A DNA stretch of 29,030 nucleotides from Priapulus caudatus (lineage: Eukaryota; Priapulida; Priapulimorpha; Priapulimorphida; Priapulidae), in assembly GCF_000485595.1 (NCBI RefSeq), contig NW_014577340.1, positions 101,204-130,233 on the forward strand. The letters are read 5' to 3'. The position numbers were made by a program, and so were the translations under genes. The first letter of the stretch is position 1. Each line of letters starts with the position of its first letter. Of this stretch, positions 7,164 through 29,030 are shown piece by piece. Under the pieces are notes generated by a model. The model was not told where the DNA came from and did no database searches. It saw only the letters and a list, made by a program, of their open reading frames with translations.

Positions 7164-7195
<32 letters not shown>

Positions 7196-10100: not shown

Positions 10101-10220
10101 ATGTAATAAACGGCGTTTTCTAGCATCCTGGCATCGACATTCAACCAAGGAATTCACCTCTTGTCGTTGGACTACACTAACCCACACTACCCACAGCTCA
10201 AGCGAAAACTGCAATTCTAG
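1440..10220 (+). CDS. WDR31: WDR31-like WD40 repeat protein (nine exons visible; 5' exons outside window)
   Basis: Nine exons splice in frame: 1440-1587, 2249-2323, 3912-4053, 5113-5213, 6638-6705, 7003-7144, 8636-8795, 9387-9456 and 10124-10220. They give about 333 residues plus a stop, against roughly 367 for vertebrate WDR31; the first exon starts in phase 2, so a short N-terminus lies upstream. WD40 strand-d signatures appear in order: SGSRDKTIHLW, SGSRDNSVRIWD, TSEDKELRLWD, ELTLWDLR and ADSTVRVWN, with GH dipeptides (SGHEKPV, EGHELVV, RGHEQGV) before them. The C-terminus NQGIHLLSLD matches the WDR31 end rather than a generic WD protein. WDR31 is known as a ciliary protein acting with ELMOD and RP2 GAPs on intraflagellar transport and BBSome recruitment; that role here is inferred from homology. 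All introns are GT..AG and phases match at every junction. The last five exons recur at 11510-14918 because of an apparent assembly duplication. Confidence 0.9.
1588..2248 (+). other. WDR31 intron; no other feature
   Basis: AT-rich intron between exons 1 and 2. It includes a short direct repetition of a CCCATACC/CCTAATAA motif around 1875-1935. I see no coding sequence, RNA gene or transposon ends in it. Confidence 0.7.
2249..2323 (+). CDS. WDR31: WDR31 exon 2 of window
   Basis: Twenty-five codons, phase 0 to 0, from acceptor ACTTTCAG to donor GCG|GTATGT. It encodes SVIVYDYLNG and KWSGHEKPVTA, the end of one WD blade and the GH start of the next. Confidence 0.88.
2461..3180 (+). mobile_element. 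Hairpin-headed interspersed repeat, copy 1 (with tandem half-unit)
   Basis: It opens with a near-perfect 31-nt palindrome (2461-2491): TAGCTCACCTTGAC, ATC, then GTCAAGATGAGCTA, with one mismatch. A GTCCGTC-rich tract and a body including GGTCAACGATAACTCA and TTTGAACGTCCTATTTTGGA follow. The body is repeated in tandem: about 2551-2860, then about 2861-3175 without the head. A second headed copy lies at 5229. It has no ORF of its own. The family is unidentified; it may be a non-autonomous transposon, since the same unit occurs twice in one gene. The right boundary is approximate. Confidence 0.65.
3258..3687. mobile_element. pogo/Tigger-like MITE with TA duplication
   Basis: The ends are inverted: AAGTCCGACCTCCTTTATCC on the left (3258) and its complement ending GGAGGTCGGACTG at 3687. 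TA dinucleotides flank both sides (3256-3257 and 3688-3689). The CAGTC..CCTCC..TATCCGG style of terminus resembles Tigger/pogo elements, which duplicate TA. It is 430 bp with no transposase, so non-autonomous. It lies in the intron before exon 3 of WDR31. Confidence 0.7.
3912..4053 (+). CDS. WDR31: WDR31 exon 3 of window
   Basis: Acceptor ACATAAAG precedes 3912 and the donor after 4053 reads CCAA|GTACGC; phase 0 to 1. It encodes a complete WD blade with FVMSGSRDKTIHLWKC and the next blade's FEGHELVVTSISLDP. The donor choice is set by the frame: A plus GT of the next exon makes Ser. Confidence 0.9.
4274..4642. mobile_element. hAT-like MITE
   Basis: Terminal inverted repeats CAGTGGTGGGCAAACT (4274) and the complement of CAGGGGTGGGCAAACT (ending 4642) bound 369 bp that also contains inner GGGCCGCA repeats near both ends. 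CAGnGGTGGGCAAAC termini are typical of hAT elements. The expected 8-bp target duplication is imperfect: TCTAGAT lies next to the left end and 3 bp outside the right end. No transposase ORF is present. Confidence 0.7.
4643..5112 (+). other. WDR31 intron sequence; nothing further seen
   Basis: AT-rich intron between the hAT-like MITE and exon 4. I found no ORF with family similarity, RNA gene or repeat ends here. Confidence 0.6.
5113..5213 (+). CDS. WDR31: WDR31 exon 4 of window
   Basis: Acceptor CTTGTTGCAG and donor CTA|GTGAGT; phase 1 to 0. It encodes NSFLCSGSRDNSVRIWDLET and ends ANISRNL, the fourth WD strand and the RN(V/L)VT junction seen in WDR31 proteins. Confidence 0.9.
5229..5610 (+). 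mobile_element. Hairpin-headed interspersed repeat, copy 2
   Basis: The same TAGCTCACCTTGAC palindrome (5229-5259), GTCCGTC tract and body as the copy at 2461 are present, here as a single unit. It begins only 15 nt into the intron, immediately after the exon 4 splice donor, in the same orientation as copy 1. The 3' boundary near 5610 is where similarity to copy 1 fades. Confidence 0.65.
5611..6637 (+). other. WDR31 intron, unannotated; poly-C tract near its end
   Basis: AT-rich intron with no recognisable gene. A C homopolymer of about 11 bases at 6304-6314 directly precedes the left edge of the duplicated block (6317). A short G run lies near 6162. The segment 6317-6637 is repeated at 11181-11509. 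Confidence 0.7.
6638..6705 (+). CDS. WDR31: WDR31 exon 5 of window (copy 1)
   Basis: Acceptor TTTTTTGTCAACCAG and donor CTAAG|GTACGC; phase 0 to 2. It encodes VTSVCWAPDDSVIAQTSEDK and EL. The exon is identical in copy 2. Confidence 0.9.
7003..7144 (+). CDS. WDR31: WDR31 exon 6 of window (copy 1)
   Basis: Acceptor CTTGTCCACAG and donor ACA|GTGAGT; phase 2 to 0. It encodes RLWDPRSFNVVHVFPKKQNI, then CCAVSEDGLHCLSG and a Gly/Ser/Cys-rich loop ending GSELT. The corresponding region of vertebrate WDR31 also has a glycine-rich insertion in this blade. Confidence 0.9.
7165..7194. repeat. (TTA)n microsatellite, copy 1
   Basis: About ten TTA units shortly after the exon 6 donor; the partner copy at 12022 has about nine. 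Confidence 0.9.
7195..7877 (+). other. WDR31 intron sequence before the minisatellite
   Basis: Intronic sequence between the (TTA)n tract and the minisatellite. Open frames on the minus strand here are short, low in complexity and disrupted differently in the two block copies, so I see no gene. Confidence 0.6.
7878..8580. repeat. ~78-bp minisatellite in WDR31 intron, copy 1 (nine units)
   Basis: Nine tandem units recognised by GCTACACCGGTACAGCTAG near 7920, 8000, 8087, 8162, 8239, 8325, 8405, 8483 and 8557. Each unit also carries TACCTTTACCTAGCTACC and TTGAGCAGGAGTGAAGG. The array starts with an inverted pair (7878-7898 against about 7916-7936). It ends about 55 bp before the exon 7 acceptor. 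Copy 2 of the block has seven units. Confidence 0.9.
8636..8795 (+). CDS. WDR31: WDR31 exon 7 of window (copy 1)
   Basis: Acceptor TTCGTTCTTGCAG and donor AAAG|GTATTC; phase 0 to 1. It encodes LWDLRQRKPLCEFRGHEQGV, then CVFLPLNH and VASCGADSTVRVWNVESK, two WD strands. It is noticeably more GC-rich than its introns. Copy 2 differs by one Leu/Val change and one silent change. Confidence 0.92.
8796..9386 (+). other. WDR31 intron; nothing further seen
   Basis: Intron between exons 7 and 8 with a short (TA)n tract at about 9359-9372 just before the acceptor. No other feature is supported. Confidence 0.7.
9387..9456 (+). CDS. WDR31: WDR31 exon 8 of window (copy 1)
   Basis: Acceptor CTTCGTTGCAG and donor TACAG|GTGCTG; phase 1 to 2. 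It encodes CVGLFMLEGRGPVTGIAAYP, corresponding to the penultimate strands of WDR31 (vertebrate ACLFTL..GPLTSLA). Confidence 0.88.
9457..10123 (+). other. WDR31 intron; nothing further seen
   Basis: AT-rich intron between exons 8 and 9. No ORF, RNA gene or repeat is supported apart from being part of the duplicated block. Confidence 0.7.
10124..10220 (+). CDS. WDR31: WDR31 terminal exon (copy 1)
   Basis: Acceptor CGTTTTCTAG; enters in phase 2 and reads SILASTFNQGIHLLSLDY, then a 14-residue tail ending LKRKLQF and TAG at 10218-10220. The FNQGIHLL motif matches the WDR31 C-terminus (FNRGIHLL in vertebrates). Confidence 0.9.
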
Positions 10221-11170
10221 ATCTTGGCTTAAAGTTGACATGCCGCTACGTTTATCATGTCACTGGTCACTCGGGACGGTCTTCTCGTAGGCACGAGGTA
10301 ATACTGATATATGAACATTATTATTCGACTTGAAAAAAAAAGTCAAAACGAGCGAATTTCGTGTTAATATGTCACTGTAATAAAAATCGACGTTGTGAGA
10401 GATGGTCAGGTGCAGGTATCTTGGTTTACGATGTCGTTATGGTGATGCTGACACTGCTGTTGTTGGTAATGGAGATTAACTGATGTTTGATATATGTTGA
10501 TTCGGTTATATGAAGAAGCTGTGATGCACGCACGTACATTTATGGCCATCAGTATAACGTCATGACAACCGATTGCATGCTACGCAGCCAAAATAACGAA
10601 TAGTAAAAACGTTTCTTCTGAGTAAATTAATAACTACTATTGTAAAAACCTACAGTGTCAGGGTACTTTATTTCTTTGGTGGAAAAAAAGTTTTCCGGGG
10701 GAAGTTATAATATCTAAGTCATTGCATAGCTGCAGACACAATTATGCGATGATATTTAGTAGTTAGTTTTGAATCGGACTGATGTGCAATTAAAGCATTG
10801 ATATTTTTATAGTCCACAAACGTCCTTTGTATTGCTGCTGCACACGCTCACTGCTTTTAGGTAATTAATCTATGTCCGTTCCTCTGTGTATCTTCACTTA
10901 TATCGGCGGATGTACTTTACACCCGAACTTCGCTAATGGCAGAAACATTGTAACGATAAATAAGAAGAGTGACTATTCTATTCACCTTAATATGTCTGTT
11001 CGCCTTATCTGGGAAGATTACTCATGTCGGGTACTTGTACACCTGCAGAGCGTTACCGTAATATTCTCATAATGTAATTAAAGGGGGGGGGGGAAGATGC
11101 AGAGAAAGGATAGAATTAGTTAGGATGGAGGATAGTTATATTCTCCTAATGCATTAGTGATATTGGGAAA
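10221..11170 (+). other. WDR31 3' UTR and flank, copy 1
   Basis: Non-coding, AT-rich sequence downstream of the stop. A G homopolymer lies at about 11083-11093 and the contig ends at the gap. The matching sequence 14919-15864 continues beyond this point. Confidence 0.6.
10379..10384 (+). promoter_or_regulatory. Candidate poly(A) signal AATAAA, copy 1
   Basis: AATAAA 159 nt after the WDR31 stop, conserved in copy 2 at 15076-15081. It is the first canonical hexamer downstream; use is inferred. Confidence 0.35.
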
Positions 11171-11180
11171 NNNNNNNNNN
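11171..11180. other. Assembly gap (10 Ns)
   Basis: Ten Ns joining two contigs. The sequence left of the gap reappears ending at 15864 and the sequence right of it begins at the equivalent of 6317, so the two contigs overlap almost completely. Confidence 0.99.
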
Positions 11181-11509
11181 TCGGTGCACTTATTCCCATT
11201 CACTCATTTGTGCCCTTTTTGTGGTGAGCTACAGTGTCATTGACACTTTTATTTTAATTAAATTGAGAGCTTATGATAACATGTAAATTTCATGATGTCG
11301 GCGATTTTTTCCTGCGTTAACGATTGGTAGGTTTAATTCTATCAAGAGCTCAAAGGACTACAGCATTCTGAACTCTTCATTCTATCCTGAGCAGCTATGT
11401 CCATCCGCGCATTTATCAGTTTATGTTGCCTAGAAACATAATCGTGAGTTTTGAGGGCTTCGCAGACCTAATTTTGGGCTTCAGTCACATATCCTTTTTT
11501 GTCAACCAG

Positions 11510-11577
11510 GTGACCAGTGTCTGCTGGGCTCCAGACGACAGTGTAATTGCTCAAACAAGTGAGGACAAAGAACTAAG
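11510..11577 (+). CDS. WDR31: WDR31 exon 5, copy 2
   Basis: Same coding sequence as 6638-6705; the donor is GTGCGC instead of GTACGC. Confidence 0.88.
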
Positions 11578-14500
11578 GTGCGCAAATTCAAAGTAAAAAC
11601 ATGACGAAACTTTCTGGCAACCGCGCAGCATTCGAGGGTAATTCAGAAACGTAGCCTCTATGTCAGTGCTTCTTAAACTATTTCAGTGTCATTCACCCTC
11701 GAGTCTTTATCACAAAATTTCATTTACCCGCGACTAAATTTCCTTGTGTTTTTGGTAAGTTTCTTTCACCCGAAAATAATTTCATTCACCCTTGGGCAAA
11801 CCATTCACCAGTTTAAACTGCTCTATGTAATCCACCCACCCTCCTCCGCTTGTCCACAGGCTGTGGGATCCGAGGTCATTCAACGTTGTTCACGTGTTCC
11901 CAAAGAAGCAGAACATTCTCAGCTGCTGTGCGGTGAGCGAGGACGGACTTCACTGCCTGTCCGGCAGCAGCGGCTGCAACAGCACGGGGTCCGAGCTGAC
12001 AGTGAGTCGAACCAGCGCCGGTTATTATTATTATTATTATTATTATTAAATCTTTATTGCATGTAATTCAAATATAAATACTTGTACTGAAGACAGTCTT
12101 TTTCATGGAGAAAAAATCTGATAAATGCAAATGCTGTTGAGCAGTTAAAATAATAAAATTTCTGAGTGATACAGTACAAAACAGCGATAAACAACATGGA
12201 GGAAAAATAGTAAACAGTAGTGGCGACGGCGCTTAAACCGCTGCGTCCGCTTTGCGTTTGTGTGTGTTTGCTGGGAAAGGTCGGGTGGGGTAGGTTCCAA
12301 ACTGGGCGCGGCGAAATAAAGAAGAGAATATAAGCTTTCTGCGGTGAGATTGCAAGACTGTGCGTTTTTAATGCGCATCGGTTCCGGCCTGTGCTAGTGA
12401 CAAAGTTGACGAGATTGTCCACTTGTATTAGTGATGACTATTTTAGGTGGAAGTGACTGACCAGAAATTCACGAAATTAATAGTGCAATATTTGCTTTCG
12501 AGCCGTCTTATACTACTCGCGTCTCCCGGTTGAGTAAATTGTGTGGTGGCGCGAGTACTAGGAGATATACCGAATAACAACCAACTTATTGACCGAGAAT
12601 ATCCGATCATACCACTAACCTAGACAAGATCAATCCGATTACTGAGATGAAATGAGGCGGCATGTTGGACACACCCTTCCCTCGCCGGCCACGCGTCACG
12701 CATTCTCAGAGTAAACCAAACCCATCGGTATCTAGCTATACCGGTGTACCCCTCCCGCTACAGGGAGTGAAGGGGCTACACCGGTAGAGCTAGTCGGTAA
12801 CAAGCTTTACTTAGCTACTTTTACCTAGCTACCTTTGAGCAGGAGTGAATGCATGGGCTACACCGGTACAGATAGTCGGTAACAACGTCAAGCTCTACTT
12901 AGCTACCTTTACCTAGCTACCCTGGAGCAGGAGTGAAGGGGCTACACCGGTACAGCTAGTCGGTAACAAGCTCTACTTAGCTATCTTTACCTAGCTACCC
13001 TTGAGCAGGAGTGAAGGGGCTACACCGGTACAGCTAGTCCGTAACAAGCTCTACTTAGCTATCTTTACCTAGCTACCCTTGAGCAGGAGTGAAGGGGCTA
13101 CACCGGTACAGCTAGTCCGTAACAAGCTCTACTTAGCTATCTTTACCTAGCTACCCTTGAGCAGGAGCGAAGGGGCTACACCGGTACAGCTAGTCCGTAA
13201 CAAGCTTAGCTACCTTTAGCTAGCTACCCTTGAGCAGGAGTGAAGGGGCTACGCCGGTACAGCTAGTAGGTATCATGCTGGCACTCCTCTCTATCGCGAG
13301 CGTGATAAGTGCTTTCGTTCTTGCAGCTGTGGGACCTGCGGCAGCGGAAGCCCCTGTGTGAGTTCAGAGGTCACGAGCAGGGCGTCAGCGGCTGCGTGTT
13401 CCTGCCCGTCAACCACGGCGGCCAGCAGATGGTGGCGTCCTGCGGCGCCGACTCGACCGTGCGCGTCTGGAACGTGGAGTCCAAAGGTATTTGCTTCACT
13501 AGTGCTACCGTCGCGCGGGTTGTGCGGTCGTGCACGGCGGAACTGCGGCGACGTTAGAGCACAGCTGCCGATCAATACGTGATGGCAGTATAGTTCTGTA
13601 GTTATAGGTTATCACGTCCCTAATTACGTAACGACAGAACGATGGATTAGGCTGGAATTTATGTCGTATCTGCGCACCTATTTGCGTGTAGTTGTCACGT
13701 TTCGATGCGCAGGTGGCTGCAGAAATAGGTCAAGATAGCTCACACACCGAGTCGAAAATCGAAAGATAAAGACACGAAGATTTAGCTAGTTCTAGACTTC
13801 ACCTAAAAACGCACAGTCGCGACACATTTCATTCGAGTTTTTCCGCCATTAGTTTTTCAGTTAATTAGTATTTCTATGTTGAAGTTAAATATAACAGTAA
13901 GTTCGTGAAATCTCTATGGTTAGTCATAAAGAATGCTGGTGTGATTGACCGACCAACTTGCTCTGTCAATGTATTTTGCTGTATGTTTGCAATGTTTTAA
14001 ATAATGCATCGATTGTGCAAGATTTTTTGTATTGGACGATTGTATGGCAGTATATATATATATATGTGCTTCGTTGCAGATTGCGTAGGTTTGTTCATGC
14101 TGGAAGGCCGTGGACCTGTCACCGGCATAGCTGCCTATCCAGATTACAGGTGCTGTCAAAATACCTATACTCTAAACATTTTACCATTTTTTTGCAACTA
14201 AAAAGTAATTAAATACCCTCCTGTTCACCTACCTGCCCATTTTGTTCAGCAAATTGTTGTCATCATTGTTTATCTAGTAACAGCTCTAATACGTCGTGAA
14301 GTAGGAGATATGGGCTCTTCCTGACATACCTCTAAATTTGGTGGTACACTTTTCAAGAATAAATATATTTTGTTTGCAGAAATTATTTTTCGTTATGTTC
14401 AAGGCTGAGGCGGTGACAGTACAAGTGCTACTATGAACTCTATAGATAATATATGTAAATGTTTGTGGTTCTGTCTTATATCTTGTATCCCTCCAATTTT

Positions 14501-14918
14501 TTGTCGTTTTGAATTTGTGCCATCATTGTTATTTATAACTACCCAACCAGTAGATCAAGAAGAATTGTTTCATGTGCACACGTGTGAGATTCAAATAGAA
14601 AGGTCTCTCTCTAGGTGCAGAAGATAAGAGTACAAAACTATGAGAAAATTTGAGTTCAGAGTTAGGATATTTACGTGCTGTGTCAGCCAGTATTTATATG
14701 AAATGTGCAGCTACTGCACAATCTTTAGCATCGTACTGATGTTTTCATTCATTCAATACTACCAGAAATTATTTCAGCCGATTACCTACTATCAATTTAT
14801 GTAATAAATGGCGTTTTCTAGCATCCTGGCATCGACCTTCAACCAAGGAATTCACCTCTTGTCGTTGGACTACACTAACTCACACTACCCACAGCTCAAG
14901 CGAAAACTGCAATTCTAG
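11510..14918 (+). CDS. WDR31: WDR31 exons 5-9, second copy (probable alternate haplotype)
   Basis: Exons 11510-11577, 11860-12001, 13327-13486, 14080-14149 and 14822-14918 repeat exons 5-9 with identical lengths, phases and splice sites. Protein changes seen are Leu to Val in exon 7 (FLPLNH against FLPVNH) and Pro to Ser in exon 9 (YTNPHY against YTNSHY). The copy has no 5' exons of its own. As a gene it would be a headless fragment, whereas as an allele it completes the same gene. It should not be counted as a paralogue. Confidence 0.88.
11860..12001 (+). CDS. WDR31: WDR31 exon 6, copy 2
   Basis: Same coding sequence, acceptor and GTGAGT donor as 7003-7144. Confidence 0.88.
12022..12048. 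repeat. (TTA)n microsatellite, copy 2
   Basis: Shorter than the partner at 7165-7194, as expected for an allelic microsatellite. Confidence 0.85.
12740..13271. repeat. ~78-bp minisatellite, copy 2 (seven units)
   Basis: Units begin near 12775, 12855, 12939, 13018, 13097, 13176 and 13247 with GCTACACCGGTACAG or close variants. Several internal units here are nearly identical to each other (all with TAGCTATCTTTACC), showing recent homogenisation within this allele. Confidence 0.88.
13327..13486 (+). CDS. WDR31: WDR31 exon 7, copy 2
   Basis: Two substitutions against 8636-8795: CTC to GTC (Leu to Val) and GGT to GGC (silent). The frame is intact. Confidence 0.88.
14080..14149 (+). CDS. WDR31: WDR31 exon 8, copy 2
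   Basis: One silent change (CCG to CCA) against 9387-9456; splice sites identical. Confidence 0.85.
14822..14918 (+). CDS. WDR31: WDR31 terminal exon, copy 2
   Basis: Matches 10124-10220 with one silent change (ACA to ACC) and one Pro to Ser change; TAG at 14916-14918. Confidence 0.88.
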
Positions 14919-15075
14919 ATCTTGGCTTAAAGTTGACATGCCGCTACGTTTATCATGTCAATGGTCACTCGGGACGGTCTTCTCGTAGGCACGAGGTAAT
15001 ACTGATATATGAACATTATTATTCGACTTGAAAAAAAAGTCAAAACGAGCGAATTTCGTGTTAATATGTCACTGT

Positions 15076-15081
15076 AATAAA
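15076..15081 (+). promoter_or_regulatory. Candidate poly(A) signal AATAAA, copy 2
   Basis: Counterpart of 10379-10384. Confidence 0.35.
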
Positions 15082-15864
15082 AATCGACGTTGTGAGAGAT
15101 GGTCAGGTGCAGGTATCTTGGTTTACGATGTCGTTATGGTGATGCTGACACTGCTGTTGTTGGTAATGGGGATTAACTGATGTATGATGTCTGTTGATTC
15201 GGTTATATGAAGAAGCTGTGACGCACGCACGTACATTTATGGCCATCAGTATAACGTCATGACAATCGATTGCATGCTACGCAGCCAAAATAACGAATAG
15301 TAAAAACGTTTCTTCTGAGTAAATTAATAACTACTATTGTAAAAACCTACAGTGTCGGGGTACTTTATTTCTTTGGTGAAAAAAAAGTTTTCCGGGGGAA
15401 TTTATAATATCTAATTCATTGCATAGCTGCAGACACAATTATGTGACGATATTTAGCAGTTAGTTTTGAATCGGACTGATGTGCAATTAAAGCATTGATA
15501 TTTTTATAGTCCACAAACGTCCTTTGTATTGCTGCTGCACACGTACACTGCTTTTAGGTAATTAATCTATGTCCGTTCCTCTGTGTATCTTCACTTATAT
15601 CGGCGGATGTACTTTACACCCGAACTTCGCTAATGGCAGAAACATTGTAACGATAAATAAGAAGAGTGACTATTCTATTCACCTTAATATGTCTGTTCGC
15701 CTTATCCGGGAAGATTACCCATGTCGGGTACTTGTACACCTGCAGAGCGTTACCGTAATATTCTCATAATGTAATTAAAGGGGGGGGAAGATGCAGAGAA
15801 AGGATATAATTAGTTAGGATGGAGGGTTGTTATATTCTCCTGATGCATTAGTGATATTGGGAAA

Positions 15865-18904: not shown

Positions 18905-20266
18905 TTACACTGGCAGGACGTGCAAGCCTGCTCAGCTAACGACGGGATGAGGGGGGGGGCTACGTTACTAAGCTTCACGTACACAACTACCGATGCTACC
19001 ATTATTAATATTAATTCCATTTTTCTATATATATTCAACGTATATATAATAGACCTATGTGCAAAAGAAATCGCACACATATATAAAACAATAATTGCTA
19101 AAACTCTGCTTGAAAAAAAAAACGGATAAAATACTCATCATAATATACAGGCGGGAAGTAAACTTCCCCGACACAGTGTATTTCTAGAAATATGTACCCC
19201 CTGCGTATACTTATGAACATGATGCGATTTGTCTGGCTCCAGGATGGACAGGGAAAAATACATGCGCGCTTTCCTGCATTTCACACATTCCCGATTGCGA
19301 TCGGTCTCACGATGGTACCTACGTAGAACTAGCTTGGCTAGAAAACTACCGGGGGCAAACCCTCTATACTGAACTCTGTTCACGTTTGCATACGAGAAAA
19401 AGGTGCGGAGCCAAGACAGACTCTACCTCACCGGTGGCAATGGTCTTCCACAAGTCACACAGTTACACGAATTGCATAGGGATGATCAGACCGAGCTACA
19501 ATTAAAATTTCCAATCGAGATTTTGTCGTCGGACACACACACACACACACACACACACTCTTCCTTACAATTTACATCGTTCAAAACAACGAAAAAGCTA
19601 AAAACACGAATCAATGCGCCGTCCGCGCGACCGCTCGTGGATTCCGAACATACACAATATACAACGATTTCTTACGATTTTTCGGTTTTCACACGATCGC
19701 GTTTACGATTGCTTACACATCGCTACGACCGCGTTGCGCGCTCATGCCAACCTTGCGGCTACAACAACCCCACCTGTCGCCGCACACGTTAGGCGAGGGG
19801 GAGCTAGTTAACGGTAGGTCGGCGCACTGCGCGCGTTCTCGCGATGGCGAGTGCCTCGTCGTAGCGACAACAGGTCGCGACCCCGCACTCACGGCCGCCC
19901 TCGTCGGTGAGCCTGCACGTGAATTACGAAGGACGCGCGGAGGTCAGCTACCCATGACGAGACCGGCGGAGGTGAGGGTCGAGGCGGCGGACGCAGACCC
20001 CACGTAACACTCCAGCTTAATGGCTACGACAGTGGGCAGCGCGGGCGAGTTCGCGTAGCAGCGGAGGAACGGAAACGCTCGTGACGACAGCGACCGTGCC
20101 GGCGACGCGTCCGACGCGCGGTCCGAACGTCATCGTGACCACCATCCCTCTCCCCTGCGCACGAACGCGCGTTTTCCGAGCGAGTCACGGAGAGCGACGT
20201 CCGCCATCCTCGTGCGCCGAACATCGCTCTTCCCCCGCTGAGCGCGTGCGTCGACGGTGGCGCCAC
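18905..20266 (-). other. 3' flank of PBX gene; no further exon recognised
   Basis: Lies downstream of the PBX stop on the minus strand. AT-rich until about 19600, then GC/CpG-rich up to the terminal exon. It contains a (CA)n tract at 19534-19559. Part is presumably 3' UTR. I found no AATAAA on the minus strand in 18905-20266, so the transcript end is unplaced. Confidence 0.5.
19534..19559. repeat. (CA)n microsatellite
   Basis: About twelve CA units in the 3' flank of the PBX gene. Confidence 0.9.
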
Positions 20267-20449
20267 CTACACCTTGGAGCGCTTGGAGGGCGGCTCGTCC
20301 TGGGTGCTGTCGTCGTCGCCGCTCTCGCTGAGCCCCTGGATGTCCGGGAACTCGGGTACGGCCGAGATGCGCAGCTCCCCGCCGCCCGGCTTGTTGCCGT
20401 CCTGCGACTCGGGCCGGCTGCCGCTGCTGCTCGCCGGCTTGTTACCGCC
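20267..20449 (-). CDS. PBX: PBX terminal exon (putative)
   Basis: Sixty codons plus TAG (20269-20267), from acceptor TTCGTTCGTTTGGCAG; phase 0, matching the preceding exon. It encodes [20 protein letters not shown], a stretch with PEFPDIQGL, an acidic run [12 protein letters not shown] and a basic end PPSKRSKV that looks like a nuclear signal. It does not resemble the SPTEGPGSVHSDTSN end of vertebrate PBX. It could be a lineage-specific PBX tail or the last exon of another minus-strand gene. Phase, strand and acceptor favour PBX. Confidence 0.6.
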   Translation of the reverse strand, partial: GGNKPASSSGSRPESQDGNKPGGGELRISAVPEFPDIQGLSESGDDDSTQDEPPSKRSKV

Positions 20450-23400
20450 CTGCCAAACGAACGAAGGTAGCATGATGGCAAACGTTAACCCTATCATCAG
20501 GTTATTTATTACCTCCACCCACGGAGTGGAGGTTATGTGATCCCTCTCGTGTAGTGTGTTCGTGTGTTAGTCCGTTCGTGTGTTAGTGTGTTCGCGCGAT
20601 CGATATTAGCGCGTTGAGTCAGCAGCAGCCAGCAGCGAGCGGCGAGCCAGCTTGTAACACATACATGTTACATGGGGCGTATGTCGCTGGCGGAGGTATG
20701 CACTCCGTGAGTGCCCTCTGTCTAGTTATTACTGTTATTAATACTGTTATTATTATTATATTGTTGCTATTATTATTATTATTGTTATATTAATATTAAC
20801 ACGCGCCAACGAGCGATATCTGCATTGGCAATGCTGTGGCAACCCACCGTATGCCAATATACAATAGTGTGATATTGATTGTATATATATAATATATGCG
20901 TGTTTATGTACAGGGTTTGTTTCCCAGGAATTTTCAGAAGCACATCATCTACAGTTGAAGATGGAGGAAGGTATCCTACAAACTGGGGTCAATTATATTA
21001 CGTGGTAAAATGGGCCGAGGTACTACGATGTGCTGAGCTCATATCAGTTCTGAGCAAGTGGATCCGGAGCTGAGGTCCGGAGCAAGTGGGGAATGTAGTT
21101 CGCGTGATGTGTCTCTCGAGTGTTTCTGACTCCCATTAATGTATTAAATATTCAACTACTCGTTATTCTATATTATTAATATACCTGCGGCGGTGTACCG
21201 CGTGCGGTGGAAAATCTGTGCTACAACATACTACTTTAATATATTGGGACAAATAGAACAATTGCGTAATACGACTGTAATTAATATTGCCACACAATAT
21301 TCAATATTTAGAATCAGATCTAAGAAGATAATAGCATGACCGGAAAAAAACGATTAGCAAGAGCTCGACACTAACTTTTTTTCAGTGGCCCGATCGGCCA
21401 CCAAAATCATTGATTTTCAATTTTTTGGCTGGCCCAAAAATAAATCTGCGTGGCCCGAAACAAAACAAAGAAAAACATAAATCTTTATTCAAATCTCGTA
21501 TTGTATATTATTCTGAAAATTGCCGGCCGTTTCTGATGCACTTGCCACAGTCGTGTTCTAAAACAAAACCCCACAACATGGGCACACACTGACATGATGA
21601 TTGAGGCATACATTTGGAGTATTATCCATTCCACGCCGCATCAAATTTTCACCAGGGATCTCTGCCATTTATCTATAACACCCCGCGTGTGCACATTGCT
21701 ATCGATCAGTTCAGACGCTTTCAAAGAGATCAAAGTTACAGAGCATGCAAATATATAAAACAAGTAACTGTAATAAACACACACATTGGGCCTTTTCATG
21801 TTAAAATAAAAACATATTAAATTTTATCTCATCAAAGTTAAAATGCTGGCAGGTCCTTCTGAACTGTAAAAATAAAATATTGGCAGATTTAATAAGATAA
21901 AGTAGAACCATAATTATCAACAACAGTAGCCTGGGTACGCGATGCATTTAAAAAGAAAAAGCAGCATCGTGTCTAAGTTCAATATTTCGTATGCGTAACA
22001 GAGACATGAGAAAATGGCATAAATAAACTTACAAAGCACTTAATATTACACTTTCGTGATTATAAATACTTGCATCATCTTCATGGAAGTTAGTTATTTC
22101 TATCACGCTGTAACGTTTCGAACGCTGGCAGTTTCGCTTCGGATCCGAAACAGTGAGCACCAGTGGCAGCTAGCTAGCTAGCAATCAGGCTGACCAGAGT
22201 CGTCCCGTATTTTGCGCCCATGTGTCCCGCGTCCGCTTACCCGACCCTTCCCGGGACGCATTTATGTGCTGTCCCGTATTTTTAACATTTTGAACAGAGC
22301 TACATCAAAAAGAGAGAATTTCCATAATTTTTTATTATGACAAATTGTTGCCTTCGAAACTCTTCATCGCTTGCGCGTTTCACGCCTGCCACTCAGATAC
22401 ACTGCCAGACAGGCGTATTGTATAGACGCATTGTCTGGTTCGCTTGATTATCAAATGTAATCACATGTTGCTACGCTGCAAAATATATGCTTGGCTGCCG
22501 CTCGCTCAGATTGTTGACCTCTGGCTAGACTGGTCCGCGAGCCGAAACTGTTCGTCGGCAGAGCGTGTACATTGTTCTATGGCAGAGCGTGAGGCCGGAT
22601 CACCAGTCTAGATACAATACGGGCTTGTTGCAGCCACAGTAGACGATAATACCGCTGTGCCATCGTTGTATGTCCCGTCGGTAGATATGCTGCAGGTTTC
22701 TGCAGTACCTGTGTGGGGCTCGCCCCCTCGCTTCCGCGAATTGCTCGGCATCTCTTTGAATGAGATTAGCACGTAAGAAACAATTATTATTTATCACATA
22801 GACACTCCTGACAGTTTAGTGGCCCGATCTTGGGCCATCGCAAATTTAACTTGTTTGCAAATTTTGGGCTGCCCGATCATCAATTTTGGTTGCCCCGCCG
22901 GCCACCGGGCTACGGCTAGTGTCCGAGCCTTGTGTTCGTATGACATTTATATATGACAGCAGAACCTAACTATAGAACCGCCTGGAACTTGATAGTAATA
23001 TGGTGTAAATGAACAAAAAGTTATTATAACAGCATGTACGGAATGGGTTTGGACGTTTCATTTCGAAACTCTCGTGATAAACAATGTTTTATCGTGTTAT
23101 CTTCATCTGCGTGGAAATACGTAAAGCATTCCTGCGCTCTCGAACTGTGCGGCTTCTCCCACTACGGCAATCACGTATGGCGCAGCGTACGGCACCGTAA
23201 CCAGCATGTACGAATGAGGTTGCAGCTTCTCATTTCCAAAGCCTGTTGATAAACAATGCAGTTCGTAACCTCTGAACTGGTCCTGCTGTGCTCTGTTTTA
23301 GGCCTGCGTGGCTCAGGTTTCGGTTTCACATACCAGCAGCCGGATGAGGTGAGGGAATCGATTTTCTGTTGTGTAGGCAGCACTGTACAAGTGAGTGCTG

Positions 23401-23842
23401 ACATTGGTGTGAAGATTCACGGAATTTGAGGGGTCTTTTCACCGGATTTTTTCTGCGAGTTTTGACGGGTTTGACAGGTTTTTTTCGTCTAGGAACACTA
23501 CCCGGGTATAAGAGATGGCCCTGTGAAAATTGCATCCAGATCGCTTGGGCGGTTTGGCCGCCTATAGGGAAGATACATACATAGATACATACGAACTCAA
23601 ATATATATTAGATAACATATCTTATATATTATTTATTACATGTGTTTATGGCTCTCAAATATTGGCTCACCTGCTGTATGCGGTCGTAAATGTTCTCGCC
23701 GGCGTAGCCTCCGGTCGATGCTATAACGTGACGTAGCGCGTTTACCTACCGACACAGGAGAAAAAACACACGTTAGATATCAGATATGGCCACACGCACG
23801 CACACACACACATACATACAGATTCATACACACCCACACGCA

Positions 23843-23874
<32 letters not shown>

Positions 23875-26800
23875 CACATACTTGTAGTGAGAGAATCAGT
23901 GGTGCACGCGCACGCGTACTCTTCATGAACAGTTACACCGACACGCTACTACGTGCCCGAGTTTATGAGACGACTTTCTTTTATCGAACCTACTACTCTG
24001 TCTATCTGTAACGAGTCTGTAGCTGTACGTGTTGTTACTACTCACTAACATCTGTTGACACTGGTGCATGGTACAGCCATTTCCTGTACACATGTGTGCT
24101 ACTACTACTTAGTCCCTACGTATGCTTCTGTAAGGACTACTTAACACCCGTGTACACGTGACAAACAAGTATCTGCCACATGCGTGCATGCGTATATATG
24201 TGTGTACATGCATGCATATAGGTGCGCACGTGCGTGATGACGTTGTGACTGTACATTAGCATGGACTGCAGCGCTGGCAGGCATGTGTGAACACGTGCAT
24301 GTTTGCGTACATGCGTGCATGCGATGGTGTTACACTTAGTAGCTGTGACTGTACATTAGAAGAGGATTGCAGCGTTGGCGTAGCTGCGTACATGCGTGAT
24401 CGTGTGTGCGTGCGTGCGATGGTGTTACACGTACCTGTGACTGTACATTAGAACAGGATTGCAGCATTGGAATAGCTGCGTGCATGCATGCATGTGTGAA
24501 CACGTGCGTGCGTGTGTGATGACGTCACCTGATGTACCTGTGACTCTACATTAGAACAGGATTTCAGCGTTGGAATAGCTGCGTGCGTGCATGCATGTGT
24601 GAACACGTGCGTGCGTGCATGCGTGTGTGTGATGACGTCACCTGATGTACCTGTGACTGTACATTAGCACCAACCGCCGCACTGGAGGAGTAGCCGTCGC
24701 CGTTCACATTTAGATTGTACATGTCCGGCTGCTGGCCCGCCATCATCTGTCCTCCACCCTGTGAGTTGGGCACCATGTTGTAGCCTGCAAACACACACAC
24801 AAGACACAGACGTTCAATCAACCGGTCGAGACATTGTCGAACACACGTGCGCGCGTACACAGTACGTCAAAGCACTGGAGCCCGTTGTGAGAAACAAAAT
24901 TAGTCTTAGTCAATTAACAAATTAACAATTTAAACAAATTAACAAATTAACAAACATTAGTCTTAACACATTAACATTTTCTCGTAGATCGTCGACAGCG
25001 CTTTAATTCGTATTCTTATGAGGAAATCTGCTACGATTTTTCATTCAGGTAACTTCGCAGCGTTTCTGTCAACGGTCTCAGAGAAAAAGTTAACGTTACG
25101 ACTAATGTTAAGACTAATTTTGTTTCTGACAATGGGCCCCTGATCGCAAGATTTCCGACTCTCGTCGAACGCTGCTCACGTTCGACGAAGTTCCCGATTC
25201 GATTCATGTCGTGTTAAGATGACGAATCGATAAGTTAAGAAAACAAAACAAACAAATAAAAGAAATGTCGACGAGTGTCATACCACTTCAATGTTTACAC
25301 GGTCTCTTACACTAACGAGCAATCGAATTACGAAACAACAGCATCACATTATGATCATGCACAGTTCACATTGGCCTCCTATAAAACACAGCAATGAAGT
25401 CAATTGTAAACCTATGAGTATAACTGAAATAGCGGCACACGACTGCACCTAAACGACCCTACGATGATCAGGTCACACAAAACAATAAACACACGAAGCT
25501 ACGTGTTTTAGCTGTAAGGGTGTAAATGGTGGAGTTATCCTAACACAATCTGCCTTTCCCTTGTAAAAAAAATGGAGAAGATCTGGTGAAATTTGTGTAG
25601 GTTGTAAAAAGCTGCACTTGGGTTTCCAGGCCTATACTCATTATGCAGAGTATTATTGGATTTTTTATATTTGATCATTGGTTGGACTCAAGAGCAACAA
25701 TAAGCAGCAGCAGCATGAGCAGCAGCGGCAGTAGTAGTAATAGCAGCAGCAGCAGTAGTAACAGCAGCACCAACAGCAGTAGCAGCAGCAGCAGCACTAG
25801 CAGCAGCAGCATCAGTAGTAGCATCAGCACCAGCAGCAGTAGCACGAACAAACATGGTTTTAATTAATCCCAATGCACACAGCTGAACTGTGAAATGCGC
25901 ATCAGAAATAAGCGCCGCCGTAGATTGACAGCGAAAGCGGGCGCCAGAAATAGCCGACACGACCGCGTCCGCACCATTTATCTGCGTCGCTAACCGTGTG
26001 CGTGGCAGCTCACGCGTAGTTTGCTACTAATGCCGAGATTTCTTTGCTTGACGTCCGACGACGACGCAAAATGGCCACCTTCCGTTTACCGTCAGAGCGG
26101 CACGCCTGCCCATGTGATCCCTCCTCTACACGCCACCCTACCTAAGCAACAAACCCAGCTAAGACTAGTGAATTGAATCACGAACTCCGTGGCTCCGAGG
26201 CCCTCGCGGCATCCACCCCATCCATCCACTAACCATGGCTAACATTTCTGCTTATTTTCTTTTTAATATAAACTTAACCCAGAAGTACCCGCGACTCTCG
26301 TTCCACGTAACATAATCAGTGACCCCTAATATTTTCGGCACTTGACCAGGCGTGGGTGCTTCAGATAATACACTACAGTACACAAAATTTTCGGACTCTT
26401 TCACGACACCCATGATGTAACATTAATTTCCCAGACCAACCAATTGTATAGGCACCGTAACAACCTACATGCATCGTTTCAAAATGATCAATATGAAGGT
26501 GAAGATATCTATGTTTATCGGGAACCCACATTCAATGTCACAATGACCATGGTACTATAAGATGACCCATGCCTCACAACGACAACGATGAATTCTTCTC
26601 TCTAACACATCCTTTGCCTAACACTCTCCTAAATTTAACCATTTCTCACCAACCTCACACTCCGCTGACCTTGCACTGACCGACGGAAACCCAGCTAGCC
26701 TAACCGATCTCTGCCAAGCAAAGCAAGCGCAACAAAATATTATTTACAAAACATTAGTTGCTTTTCTCTTTGAACTTCATAGGTCGCAAGACGAAATCGG

Positions 26801-28732
26801 TGAGAACAGATCTGTCATAGCTCGCCCTGATCCAGTCTTCTATCAACTACTCCCATCATGGTTCATTCCACTCTACCCAACTAGTGCCGACTCGTACCCA
26901 AGACCCGAAGACCCCCTCTCTACCGCCTCTCTTTGAGCGCCACAGATCCGTAGCATGATCGGTCATGCGTCGGTCGCTACAGATGCGGCTCCGACGCATT
27001 TCTCTCCGTCACCGTTATCAACATCAGCTTCTTCCCCTCGCTGCCAGACGAGACAGCCGCCATCGATGCGTAACGCGGCTCTACCTAAGCGACGACGACG
27101 GCGCGAGAATGAGCGACGCAACGATTCGCAAGCACCGGCCAGCGATTTGATCGGCTGCGCATGCACGCACGGGGCGGGCGGGCGGTCGGGAGATGGTGGT
27201 GCAGGGGGCGCTAGCGGAGGGAGCCACGGGGCGCCTAGCTCGTCTCCGCGCAGCGCGTTACCTTGCTGACCTCCCGTCACAACCGTGGCTGCGGCAGCCT
27301 TTGCGGCGTACAGGTTAGCTTCCTCCTGCGCTTTACCTATGTTCTTCTTATAGCGGATGCGCTTGTTGCCAAACCAGTTGGAGATCTACGGGAGGAGAAA
27401 TTGACACAATGTCGGTTACTACTGGACGCAGCATTACCTGACTGACTAGCATTCATGGTGGCGGCCGCCCGGGATGCGGCCTTCGCCGCGTAAAGGTTCG
27501 CCTCTTCCTGCTCTTTACCTATGTTCTTCTTATAGCGGATGCGCTTGTTGCCAAACCAGTTGCATATCTACAGGAGCAAAAATACAGTACGTTAGGCTCG
27601 ATAAACAGTGCCGTTGGTTGAGGTAGCACGAGCGGTTTTCGCTGCCGAGACGCCAAGAAAACGCAGTACTGTCTCAGGTGTATCGACGACTCGACGAGAA
27701 AACATGAGACGCGGGGTGGACGCGTTGACGATCGTAATATCGAGCGAGGAACGACAAGTGTTACAGGTGCCCCACCACGAAGAACAGAAGTAGTGCATAT
27801 GCTACCACAACCAAGAGAAGTGTTTACGCGGCCTTGCCCTGTATGTTTTGTTCTCCCCGGAGTGCAAATCGCGTAAAACGTGCCTTCTCAATTATGTCGT
27901 GCCGTTGAGTGCAAAACCTCGGCGAAAGTTCGTTATTTTTCCCTCGCCTGTATTGATAGGTTTACGGAAATGACCAGGGATTACGTTTATTCCGAACATT
28001 TGCATTGAAAGAATAACTAGCAGAATGAGTGTTGCAAATGATATTTAGATTTTCCATGGCTCGTGACATCGGCGATGCCACAGCGAGAAGCGATTTTCGA
28101 GCTGCACATCTCTGATGAAGACACTTGTCGGTACAGCTTCTTTTTTCACGGCTAACGCTTACTCATGCTTACATCCATAATTCATGCAGGTTTTACGGCG
28201 ATTTGCTGCGATTAGTTTGCGCAGGAAGGCTTCTTTAATAATCGAGTTAATTGCTTTTGCACTCAACGCGGCCCAATCAACTCGCTGCCGACGGAGCTTA
28301 GACGGGCGGCGCGACTGCGCGCATGCCGCCACCTGAAGGCTTCGTCTCGTCCTCCCGTCCCGCGGGAACCGCCGCGCACACGTCTAAGCTCGCGTAGGTT
28401 TCGCACGCCGCCGCGACGAGGGGAGATGGGAACCCTCCCCCGGGATCGAACCACGAGGGGATCAAACCCCGACAGGATCGAACCCCAAGGGGGATCGAAG
28501 CCCGGGGGGGTCGAACCCCGGGGGGATCGAAGCCCGGGGGGGATCGAACCCTGGGGATCGAACCCCAAAGGGATCGAACCCCGACCTCGCTGCTACCTGT
28601 GACACGGTGATTCCACACTTCCTCGCCAGCTCCTCCTTCGCCTCCTCGCTCGGGTACGGGTTGCTGAGGTGCGAGTAGAAGTACTCGTTGAGAATCTCCG
28701 TCGCCTGCTTGCTGAAGTTCCTCCTCTTGCGC
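20267..28732 (-). CDS. PBX: PBX/extradenticle homeodomain transcription factor, 3' half (with duplicated helix-3 exon)
   Basis: TALE-class PBC homeoprotein, a nuclear Hox and Meis/Hth partner. Minus-strand exons in gene order are 28597-28732, then either 27438-27567 or 27262-27385, then 24651-24784, 23671-23745 and 20267-20449. The homeodomain begins [18 protein letters not shown], carries the TALE three-residue loop extension in [11 protein letters not shown], and breaks after CGITVSQ, the intron position 44/45 common in homeoboxes. Helix 3 is [15 protein letters not shown] or [15 protein letters not shown] with Gly50 and Asn51, followed by the PBC C-terminal helix [18 protein letters not shown] and LRHVI..TGGY further on match PBX1-type tails. 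The PBC-A/B domains (Meis binding) would be encoded beyond 29030. The gene is convergent with WDR31. The last exon is the least certain member. Confidence 0.9.
20510..20725 (+). mobile_element. Short non-autonomous Helitron-like element
   Basis: The right end has hairpin GCACTC-CGT-GAGTGC (20700-20714) followed 7 nt later by CTAG (20722-20725) and T, the Helitron 3' arrangement. The left end opens with an 8-bp hairpin ACCTCCAC..GTGGAGGT (20511-20533). GTGTGTTCGTGTG repeats lie inside. It has no ORF. It sits in the last PBX intron about 60 bp upstream of the terminal exon acceptor. The left boundary is approximate. Confidence 0.55.
20726..21357 (-). other. PBX last intron, AT-rich; (ATT)n tract
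   Basis: Imperfect (ATT/TTA)n at about 20727-20798, then AT-rich sequence with no supported feature. Confidence 0.6.
21358..22932. mobile_element. hAT-like non-autonomous element, ~1.6 kb, degenerate
   Basis: The left end CAAGAGCTCGACACTAAC and right end (complement) CAAGGCTCGGACACTAGC are imperfect inverted repeats. Subterminal GGCCCGATC / GGCCACC / CAAAATnATTGAT blocks are also inverted between the ends (21388-21420 and about 22870-22910). Such CARGGCTCGRCACTA ends occur in hAT elements. There is no transposase ORF and no clear 8-bp duplication (ACGATTAG against TGTTCGTA). A foreign segment with GTCCCGTATTTT motifs (about 22200-22290) may be a nested insertion. It lies in the last PBX intron. 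Confidence 0.5.
22933..23670 (-). other. PBX last intron, nothing further seen
   Basis: Intronic sequence between the hAT-like element and the 25-codon exon. A related phrase recurs at about 23032-23066 and 23204-23257 (CAGCATGTACG.AATG.GTT..), suggesting an old local duplication. No gene is visible. Confidence 0.5.
23671..23745 (-). CDS. PBX: PBX exon with LRHVI..TGGY motif
   Basis: Twenty-five codons, phase 0 to 0, with a T-rich tract and acceptor CCTGTGTCGGTAG and donor CAG|GTGAGC. It encodes [14 protein letters not shown] then [11 protein letters not shown]. It corresponds to VDTLRHVISQTGGY of vertebrate PBX1, joined to VGANVQSQ exactly as here. It is too short to be seen by ORF length alone. 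Confidence 0.88.
23798..23880. repeat. (CA)n/(CACG)n microsatellite
   Basis: CA-rich imperfect tract just upstream, in gene direction, of the acceptor of the 23671-23745 exon. Confidence 0.85.
24240..24650 (-). repeat. ~100-bp tandem array derived from a PBX exon end and its splice donor
   Basis: Four degenerate units follow the donor of exon 24651-24784. On the minus strand each repeats CTAATGTACAGTCACAG, the last bases of that exon, with exon-equivalent boundaries at about 24538, 24435, 24343 and 24244 (spacing 92-113 bp). GCATGC/GTGTG-rich filler separates them. The two nearest units keep an intact donor (CAG|GTACAT and CAG|GTACGT); the two farthest have lost it (CAG|CTAC and CAA|CG). Confidence 0.85.
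24651..24784 (-). CDS. PBX: PBX exon downstream of the homeodomain
   Basis: Acceptor TGTGTTTGCAG and donor CAG|GTACAT; phase 1 to 0, so it accepts either helix-3 exon. It encodes [20 protein letters not shown], then [15 protein letters not shown] and VGANVQSQ. The [13 protein letters not shown] end matches the PBX1 tail [17 protein letters not shown]. It is Gln/Gly/Met-rich and probably disordered. Confidence 0.9.
24785..25687 (-). other. PBX intron, AT-rich
   Basis: Intron sequence with short AACAAATTA direct repeats (about 24905-24965). A related stretch (CTTAGTC..TTAACA..TTTTCTC and its complement near 25075-25135) suggests a weak inverted pair. No gene is visible. Confidence 0.5.
25688..25853. 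repeat. (AGC/AGT)n imperfect trinucleotide repeat
   Basis: About 55 triplets, mostly AGC with AGT, AAC and ATC interruptions, in the large PBX intron. It is open in several frames simply because of its composition. There is no splice context to suggest coding use. Confidence 0.85.
25854..27261 (-). other. PBX intron; GC-rich near the cassette exon
   Basis: Mixed AT-rich sequence, then a CpG-rich stretch with GGGCGGGCGGGCGG at about 27172-27186 close to the downstream helix-3 exon. The open frames at about 26955-27280 are compositional. No separate gene is supported. Confidence 0.5.
27262..27385 (-). CDS. PBX: PBX helix-3 exon, downstream cassette (Ser form, canonical)
   Basis: 41 codons plus one base, phase 0 to 1, acceptor TTTCTCCTCCCGTAG, donor CAAG|GTAACG. 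It encodes [20 protein letters not shown], then [11 protein letters not shown] and [10 protein letters not shown]. Ser before Asn47 and [13 protein letters not shown] are the conserved Extradenticle residues, so this is the ancestral form. It joins CGITVSQ upstream and GYNMVPN downstream in frame. Only 52 nt separate it from the donor of the alternative exon. Confidence 0.93.
27386..27437 (-). other. 52-nt intron between the two helix-3 exons
   Basis: Begins GTAATG and ends CTCCTCCCGTAG. If branchpoint and donor need more room than this, the two exons cannot be spliced to each other. If they are, the frame shifts and a TAA follows after about a dozen codons. Confidence 0.8.
27438..27567 (-). 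CDS. PBX: PBX helix-3 exon, upstream cassette (Cys form)
   Basis: 43 codons plus one base, phase 0 to 1, acceptor GCTCCTGTAG, donor GTCAG|GTAATG. It encodes [20 protein letters not shown], then [11 protein letters not shown] and [12 protein letters not shown]. It is a tandem duplicate of 27262-27385 with Cys for Ser at homeodomain position 46, Glu for Ala in the PBC C-terminal helix, and a different tail. All base-contact residues (Asn47, Gly50, Asn51, Arg54/Arg55 region) are kept and there is no stop. That argues for use as an alternative exon rather than a dead copy. Confidence 0.88.
27568..28436 (-). other. PBX intron between homeodomain exons
   Basis: Intron separating the first homeodomain exon from the helix-3 cassettes, mostly AT-balanced with a GC-rich stretch from about 28268 onward leading into the minisatellite. 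No gene is recognised. Confidence 0.6.
28437..28585 (-). repeat. GC-rich minisatellite of B-box-like units beside a splice donor
   Basis: Nine tandem units of about 12-18 bp built on plus-strand GGGATCGAACCCC, separated by G or C runs. On the minus strand the units read GGGGTTCGATCCC. Five match the RNA polymerase III internal B box GGTTCGANNCC exactly (units at about 28442, 28507, 28541, 28553 and 28570). The array ends about 11 nt inside the intron from the 5' splice site at 28596. G runs of 4-7 on the plus strand could also form quadruplex-like structures. Confidence 0.8.
28597..28732 (-). CDS. PBX: PBX homeodomain exon, helices 1-2
   Basis: Acceptor TTGCTGTCCTCCGGCAG; the exon starts with the last base of an Arg codon and then reads [37 protein letters not shown] and CGITVSQ. 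The donor is CAG|GTAGCA; phase 2 to 0. It includes the basic N-terminal arm and the PYP loop extension that defines TALE homeodomains. In PBX this loop forms the pocket for the Hox hexapeptide. Upstream exons (PBC domain) are outside the window. Confidence 0.95.
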
Positions 28733-29030
28733 CTGCCGGAGGACAGCAACGCGCGAGTGAGTGTCGGTGATCGCGAGTTACGTCGTACGATTGCCAATTA
28801 TGAATGAATCCGGCCGGTTCAGATCGAATGTGTTATCAATTAAAATTAAAATTAAAATGACAGGCTAGACCAATGAATTGGGACCTCCTTTACGGATTTT
28901 CCGATGTACACCTTCGTTCTGCACCCGGCACCAATGAATACCCCTTCAGTAATACATTATGAATCACAGTACTTTCGAAAGAAACCGTTGTCTTCTGCTA
29001 GCACTTTTAGAAAGCCCGAGAGAAGGATCG
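28733..29030 (-). other. PBX upstream intron (partial)
   Basis: Intronic sequence up to the window edge with a short AATTAAA repetition near 28837-28856. No further PBX exon is recognisable. Confidence 0.6.

What the first reader, a model, noticed from the sequence alone, without database searches (positions are those of the whole stretch)
27262..27567. Tandem, mutually exclusive exons that swap the recognition helix of a PBX/Extradenticle homeodomain
Seen: two complete minus-strand exons (27438-27567 and 27262-27385) each encode the [16 protein letters not shown] core and the PBC helix. Each has its own acceptor and donor, and both run phase 0 to phase 1, so either joins CGITVSQ upstream and GYNMVPN downstream in frame. 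They differ at homeodomain position 46 (Cys against Ser), in the C-terminal helix (GKEQ against GKAQ) and in the following tail. Known: Asn47, Gly50 and Asn51 of PBX contact DNA, and the C-terminal helix strengthens DNA binding and Hox cooperation. Inference: alternative splicing would produce two PBX proteins with tuned DNA or partner binding. I do not know of a described helix-3 exon switch in a PBC gene.
Basis: partly seen in the sequence, partly recalled or inferred. Interest (0 to 1): 0.88.

Follow-up and report, generated by a model that had tools for sequence, protein, structure and literature searches.

The report
Swappable homeodomain exons in PBX gene
An invertebrate's gene for the Hox partner PBX carries two neighbouring, interchangeable copies of one exon of its DNA-binding domain, arranged so that a messenger RNA can sensibly use only one of them; this probably lets one gene make two slightly different PBX proteins, but no RNA evidence was available to prove it.

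Summary
Exons A (27567-27438) and B (27385-27262) are tandem copies of the exon for helix 3 and the PBC helix of a PBX/extradenticle gene, whose 3' end also lies in the window. Both copies look functional: in 30 core codons 8 of 10 changed codons are synonymous. Using A+B or neither gives a frameshift and stop. The separating intron is 52 nt; the shortest of 38 estimated myosin introns in the same genome is about 104 nt (raw gap 86). B's probable branch point lies 22 nt from A's donor, under the ~50-nt steric limit in print. Mutually exclusive splicing is the best reading, without RNA proof. 'Swaps the recognition helix' is overstated: helix 3 differs only at Cys/Ser46; the other changes are Glu/Ala at the PBC-helix start and the tail. 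Most likely effect: tuning of the allosteric fourth helix. Related gene models: Ridgeia has two helix-3 copies; molluscs, Owenia and a barnacle vary the neighbouring homeodomain exon. A known kind of mechanism; a new variant in this gene class as far as my searches show.

The parts
28597..28732 (-). Exon U: homeodomain N-arm, helix 1, TALE loop, helix 2 (RKRRNF...CGITVSQ); phase 2 to phase 0
   Evidence: Pfam Homeobox_KN and Homeodomain on the joined product
27438..27567 (-). Exon A: helix 3 and PBC helix, variant copy ([44 protein letters not shown])
27386..27437 (-). 52-nt intron between A and B; probable branch-point A at 27416 (GTAAC), 22 nt from A's donor and 30 nt from B's acceptor
27262..27385 (-). 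Exon B: helix 3 and PBC helix, canonical copy ([42 protein letters not shown])
27568..27612 (-). 3' splice region of A, with branch-point candidate CTAAC (A at 27592, 24 nt from the acceptor), alignable to the region before B (20 of 2000 shuffles as good)
24651..24784 (-). Exon D: common downstream exon (GYNMVPN...VGANVQSQ)
23671..23745 (-). Exon [30 protein letters not shown]-terminal region
   Evidence: read; motif found
20267..20449 (-). Exon F: last coding exon, [10 protein letters not shown]...[10 protein letters not shown] and stop
   Evidence: DEPP-KR-KV-type ending also in Lineus, Tubulanus and Owenia proteins

Best explanation
The helix-3/PBC-helix exon of a PBX/extradenticle gene was duplicated in tandem, and the two copies are spliced as mutually exclusive alternatives. 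Shown from sequence: two complete exons with equal phases, splice sites at both ends, mostly synonymous differences, and a frameshift if both or neither are used. Inferred: exclusivity is enforced because A's donor and B's branch point are too close (22 nt; 52-nt intron) to be paired by the spliceosome, with nonsense-mediated decay removing leftovers. Inferred: the two proteins keep the same base contacts but differ in the C-terminal extension that folds into a fourth helix on DNA and promotes partner binding, so the switch tunes DNA affinity or Hox/MEIS cooperation rather than the site recognised.
For: Coordinates, phases, frames. Codons 1-30: 8 synonymous, 2 non-synonymous; P of 8 or more synonymous of 10 is 9e-5 to 2.5e-4 under random single-base change; codons 19-30 alone 7 of 8, P about 1e-4 to 2.4e-4. 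Donors of A and B rank 7 and 11 of 636 GT in the 3' gene region by a donor matrix recalled from memory. Own-genome intron background: 88 myosin-head matches gave 38 adjacent exon pairs; gaps corrected for profile overlap 104 to 4206 nt, raw gaps 86 nt and up; no match hides a surplus of 30-80 nt, two hide 156 and 249 nt; 5 junctions placed by best GT-AG fit are 131-248 nt. TAAC branch-point candidates before A and B align. A ~50-nt donor-branch-point steric limit and its use in OGDH exons 4a/4b: passages of PMC7969005. Fourth-helix folding and allostery of PBX-HD: passage of PMC4786136. Two helix-3 copies in a Ridgeia model.
Against: No RNA read or EST was available, and none of the 259 retrieved proteins holds the A- or B-specific tail pieces tested. 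Synonymous differences are uneven: 0 of 15 codons with a synonymous option in codons 3-18 against 7 of 12 in codons 19-30 (Fisher 9e-4), so gene conversion could have kept part of A intact without selection on A; codons 19-30 argue for selection by themselves but are few. No branch point was mapped, and the 52-nt intron holds no full yUnAy match. Flank similarity downstream of A and B is not above shuffles (480 of 2000 as good). The intron background comes from one gene family. In other animals 52-nt introns are spliced normally (recalled). The functional difference is inferred from position only.
Confidence: 0.62

Rival explanations
1. Both exons are used, mutually exclusively, but the two proteins are functionally equivalent; the copy persists by drift or as a regulatory convenience.
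For: Helix 3 is identical from residue 47 on; Cys46 occurs in 21 of 259 motif matches of retrieved PBC proteins.
Against: Glu before QEEAN is found in 0 of those 259 and lies in the extension known to fold and signal to the partner site (passage); most changes in A's core are synonymous.
Confidence: 0.2
2. A is a dead copy: not spliced into mRNA, kept similar to B by recent duplication or gene conversion.
For: 50-nt identical run and uneven synonymous divergence; B is the canonical sequence, A the odd one.
Against: A's donor ranks as well as B's, the frame is open, the length change is in frame, and 7 of 8 changes are synonymous in codons 19-30.
Confidence: 0.1
3. The pair works as an off switch: joining A to B gives a stop codon and decay, lowering PBX level.
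For: A+B gives [12 protein letters not shown] and a stop.
Against: The 52-nt intron is about half the shortest of 38 introns estimated in this genome, so A-B joining should be hard; conserved coding in both copies is not needed for a poison exon.
Confidence: 0.05
4. Assembly artefact: one exon copy is a false duplication.
For: The same window has a near-identical direct repeat (offset 4.69-4.87 kb) beside an N10 gap, so false duplication is possible in this assembly.
Against: A and B differ at many positions and by an in-frame indel, the window has no N near them, and the similarity fades outside the exons.
Confidence: 0.03

Closest known systems
C. elegans unc-62 (MEIS/homothorax) exons 7a/7b
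   Same: Mutually exclusive internal exons inside a TALE homeodomain of a Hox cofactor. Passages of PMC3585033 report 7a in the intestine and 7b in other tissues, and that 7a activates a vitellogenin reporter.
   Different: MEIS, not PBC; [quoted passage not shown] Passages of PMC3685541 disagree on tissue specificity: they describe largely overlapping expression of the unc-62 transcripts.
FOXP1 exons 18/18b
   Same: Mutually exclusive exons within the DNA-binding domain of a developmental transcription factor (passages of review PMC11701043).
   Different: There DNA motif preference changes; here helix 3 is identical from residue 47 on.
OGDH exons 4a/4b (steric mutually exclusive splicing; alpha-tropomyosin appears there as a reference)
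   Same: Exon duplication, with branch points closer than ~50 nt to the upstream donor (passages of PMC7969005).
   Different: OGDH uses distant branch points in an intron of 118-131 nt in birds and mammals; here the whole intron is 52 nt.
Other PBC genes with doubled homeodomain exons in gene models (Pomacea, Biomphalaria, Owenia, Mytilus, Panulirus, Pollicipes, Littorina; Ridgeia)
   Same: Doubled or alternative homeodomain exons in a PBC gene.
   Different: All but Ridgeia vary the helix 1-2 exon. In Ridgeia the canonical-looking helix-3 copy comes first and the odd one second, the reverse of this gene. These are models, not RNA.
PBX1a/PBX1b (exon 7 choice, PTBP1)
   Same: Splicing-made PBX isoforms (passages in PMC11701043, and PMC4755740).
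   Different: Changes the C-terminus; both isoforms keep the same homeodomain.

Membership tests
PBC (PBX/extradenticle) gene | TALE homeodomain close to PBX1/Exd | tested here: met
   PDB search: PBX1 1b72_B E 1.6e-43, Exd 4cyc_B 2.5e-42; Pfam Homeobox_KN
PBC (PBX/extradenticle) gene | PBC helix after the homeodomain and conserved C-terminal exons | tested here: met
   [12 protein letters not shown] in both exons; NALRHVI-TGGY and DEPP-KR-KV exons
PBC (PBX/extradenticle) gene | N-terminal PBC-A/PBC-B domain | not testable with these tools
   Lies upstream of the window; not found in the readable upstream sequence, part of which is withheld; the PF03792 genome search did not complete
Tandem-duplicated mutually exclusive exons | Adjacent homologous exons with the same phases | tested here: met
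Tandem-duplicated mutually exclusive exons | Double inclusion or double skipping breaks the frame (common, not universal) | tested here: met
Tandem-duplicated mutually exclusive exons | Transcripts contain exactly one of the two | not testable with these tools
   no RNA data at hand
Steric (tropomyosin/OGDH-type) exclusion | Branch point under ~50 nt from the upstream donor | tested here: met
   met by geometry, since the whole intron is 52 nt; candidate at 22 nt; not mapped experimentally
Dscam-type docking/selector RNA pairing | Competing intronic base pairs choosing one exon | tested here: inconclusive
   8 inverted-repeat pairs in 24600-28700, none in an evident docking arrangement; no comparative sequences
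FOXP1-type specificity switch | Exon swap changes base-contacting residues | tested here: not met
   residues 47-51 and [11 protein letters not shown] identical in A and B; residue 46 was not tested structurally

The most novel reading that the evidence does not exclude
The homeodomain of the Hox cofactor PBX has repeatedly become a splicing-controlled module in protostomes: separate lineages duplicated either the helix 1-2 exon or the helix 3/PBC-helix exon, and here the switch installs an acidic residue at the start of the allosteric fourth helix, so that one PBX gene supplies cofactors with different partner cooperation in different tissues.
Probability: 0.3. Interest if true: 0.75.

Novelty: new variant of a known kind. 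Interest (0 to 1): 0.55.

Why it matters
PBX is a general Hox partner (recalled). In this genome exon A has no match at E <= 0.001 besides A and B, so one gene would have to serve. If splicing supplies two homeodomain versions, Hox cooperation could be retuned by tissue without gene duplication. The 50-nt identical run, the 52-nt intron and the doubled homeodomain exons in other PBC gene models make the idea directly testable by RNA-seq and simple binding assays.

Tried and rejected
Internal donor idea: ATAG|GTAAAG inside both exons (phase 1, so it could join D in frame and drop the PBC helix) ranks 20 of 636 GT, but none of 259 motif matches lacks the helix; kept only as a note. Shared ancestry with Ridgeia: over 30 core residues A and B differ by 2, Ridgeia's copies by 6, A from the Ridgeia copies by 5 and 7, B by 3 and 6; this and the reversed order suggest separate duplications, but gene conversion could hide shared ancestry, so undecided. 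The Ridgeia model is an unverified database model with 11 extra residues before the first copy and a truncated helix 1-2 exon; it shows two copies, not two isoforms. Oncorhynchus P0002 (repeated partial helix-2 segments) and Adineta P0015 (two PBC genes in one model) were not counted as exon switches. Species: not identified; by the tail the best of 120 listed hits (166 in all) are nemerteans, 74 and 73 bits, which I do not treat as an identification. Docking-site RNA structure: one search gave nothing decisive. The donor score printed for exon E is wrong because my coordinate was off by one; it is not used. My notebook says 48 nt for the identical run; the alignment gives 50. Manila clam: the main text of PMC9803972 (passages) says that pbx4 is differentially spliced between the sexes; the kind of event is in a supplement that I could not read, so it is a lead only. 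The spliced proteins were not folded, since they are not letter-for-letter in the window.
Full report
The observation. Exon U (28732-28597) encodes RKRRNF to CGITVSQ. Exon A (27567-27438, 130 nt) and exon B (27385-27262, 124 nt) each encode [16 protein letters not shown] and the PBC helix; exon D starts at 24784 with GYNMVPN. A and B have AG before and GT after, and both run phase 0 to phase 1. Exons E (23745-23671) and F (20449-20267, with stop) complete the 3' end of the gene. The joined product matches PBX1 and Exd structures (1b72_B E 1.6e-43; 4cyc_B E 2.5e-42) and Pfam Homeobox_KN.

Not chance, and not a false duplication. Nucleotides 6 to 55 of A and B are identical, then differences appear mainly at third positions, then a diverged tail with a two-codon indel. 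The similarity reaches back into the acceptor and a TAAC branch-point candidate (20 of 2000 shuffles as good), but is not detectable past the donors (480 of 2000 as good). The window does hold a suspicious near-identical direct repeat, offset 4.69-4.87 kb, around an N10 gap, but the exon pair does not look like that.

Both copies look used. In codons 1-30 there are 10 changed codons, 8 synonymous; under random single-base change the chance of 8 or more is 9e-5 to 2.5e-4. The pattern is uneven: 0 of 15 codons with a synonymous option changed in codons 3-18, 7 of 12 in codons 19-30 (Fisher 9e-4). A short conversion tract, or constraint on the RNA, would explain that. Codons 19-30 alone have 7 of 8 changes synonymous (P about 1e-4 to 2.4e-4). 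With a donor matrix recalled from memory, the donors of A and B rank 7 and 11 among 636 GT of window 20000-29030; D ranks 33 and U 60.

Why only one copy per mRNA. Using both shifts the frame and gives [12 protein letters not shown] and a stop; using neither also shifts the frame. The intron between A and B is 52 nt. In the same genome (385,217,808 bases), 88 myosin-head matches gave 38 adjacent exon pairs. Raw gaps start at 86 nt; corrected for overlap of the profile matches, the estimates run from 104 to 4206 nt. A search by profile can read through short introns: 2 of the 88 matches hide 249 and 156 surplus nt, none hides 30-80 nt. Of eight regions, five gave a junction by best GT-AG fit, 131-248 nt. 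The branch-point candidate before B lies 22 nt from A's donor. A steric limit near 50 nt between donor and branch point, used to enforce exclusive splicing of OGDH exons 4a and 4b, is described in PMC7969005 (passages). Steric exclusion plus frame is therefore the likeliest mechanism; it is inferred, not shown, and rests on one gene family for the background.

What changes in the protein. A has Cys46 where B has Ser46, Glu where B has Ala just before QEEAN, and a different tail. The residues from Asn47 through KKNIGK are the same; Asn51 and Arg55, named as DNA contacts in PMC5240567 (passage), are among them. Among 259 motif matches in the 259 proteins retrieved by the three searches (at most 120 listed per search), residue 46 is Ser 236, Cys 21, Asn 1, Ala 1; the residue before QEEAN is Phe 150, Ala 107, Thr 1, Gly 1, Glu 0. 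So B is canonical and A is the odd copy at the start of the PBC helix. A passage of PMC4786136 states that this extension is disordered in free PBX-HD, folds to a fourth helix on DNA binding and enhances partner binding at a remote site. Hence the proposal that the swap tunes affinity or cooperation rather than the DNA site.

Related loci. Exon A matches two places in its own genome at E <= 0.001, A (100%) and B (81%). In one search (2616 hits, 120 listed) the six top hits were inspected: Pomacea, Biomphalaria, Owenia and Mytilus models each carry two U-type segments before one helix-3 exon, Panulirus three, Oncorhynchus a run of partial repeats. Models with one or the other U-type copy exist in Littorina (P0042, P0080) and Pollicipes (P0194/P0196, P0204), and Pomacea P0167 uses one of the two copies in P0003. 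In one search (1201 hits, 120 listed) the top hit, a Ridgeia piscesae model, holds two helix-3 copies in series; it is the only one of the 259 retrieved proteins with two. None of the 259 holds the A- or B-specific tail pieces tested, so this species or a near relative is not among them. These are gene models, not RNA. They suggest that PBC homeodomain exons duplicate repeatedly. Whether U is also duplicated in this gene could not be seen: the upstream exons lie outside the window, part of the contig is withheld, no further PBC exon was found in the readable part, and the genome search with U did not complete.

Literature. unc-62 exons 7a/7b in C. elegans are mutually exclusive exons in a MEIS homeodomain; passages of PMC3585033 report tissue-specific use, while passages of PMC3685541 describe overlapping expression. 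FOXP1 exons 18/18b change DNA preference (passages of PMC11701043). PBX1a/b differ by exon 7 and share the homeodomain (passages). Manila clam pbx4 is reported as differentially spliced between sexes, event type not seen (passages of PMC9803972). Searches for a PBC homeodomain exon switch listed none; I saw only titles and abstract starts for most papers, some lists were capped, and the library holds open-licence papers only.

Verdict. A real tandem exon duplication, very probably spliced exclusively, in a PBC gene; new variant of a known kind. The functional claim is the weak part. RNA evidence is the missing decisive test.

Noticed in passing
window 6328-10633 and 11198-15330, N10 at 11171-11180: Direct repeat at 4.69-4.87 kb offset, 97-100% identical in the nine listed segment pairs, including a WD40-type exon (8618-8866 and its copy at 13309-13557); the second copy starts just after a 10-N gap, so a haplotype or false duplication is possible.
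   Followed up: partly
window 27519/27518 and 27337/27336: In-frame internal donor candidate ATAG|GTAAAG in both exons; the 50-nt identical run ends at its +6 base. Use would drop the PBC helix in frame. No isoform of that kind among 259 motif matches.
   Followed up: partly
window 24296-24667: 103-nt tandem repeat that includes the end and donor of exon D (TAATGTACAGTCACAG|GTAC...), giving several donor-like copies downstream.
   Followed up: no
window 28442-28584: About nine copies of a 16-nt GGGTTCGATCCCC-like unit just after the donor of exon U, resembling the tRNA T-arm/B-box motif (resemblance recalled, not tested).
   Followed up: no
window 25703-25844: CTG/CTA-type triplet repeat, about 47 units, in the intron between B and D (sense strand of the gene).
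   Followed up: no
database proteins P0194/P0196 and P0204 (Pollicipes), P0042 and P0080 (Littorina): Models of one species that differ in the helix 1-2 homeodomain exon while the helix-3 part shown is the same, suggesting a separate exon switch in barnacles and gastropods.
   Followed up: partly
database proteins such as P0124-P0126 and P0134 with VCN, from sources without names: A group of PBC proteins with Cys46 and KRNIGK, sharing an [27 protein letters not shown] helix-1 region.
   Followed up: no
PMC9803972 (paper): Manila clam pbx4 is a hub gene of a female-gonad module and differentially spliced between sexes; the exon is not named in the passages seen.
   Followed up: partly
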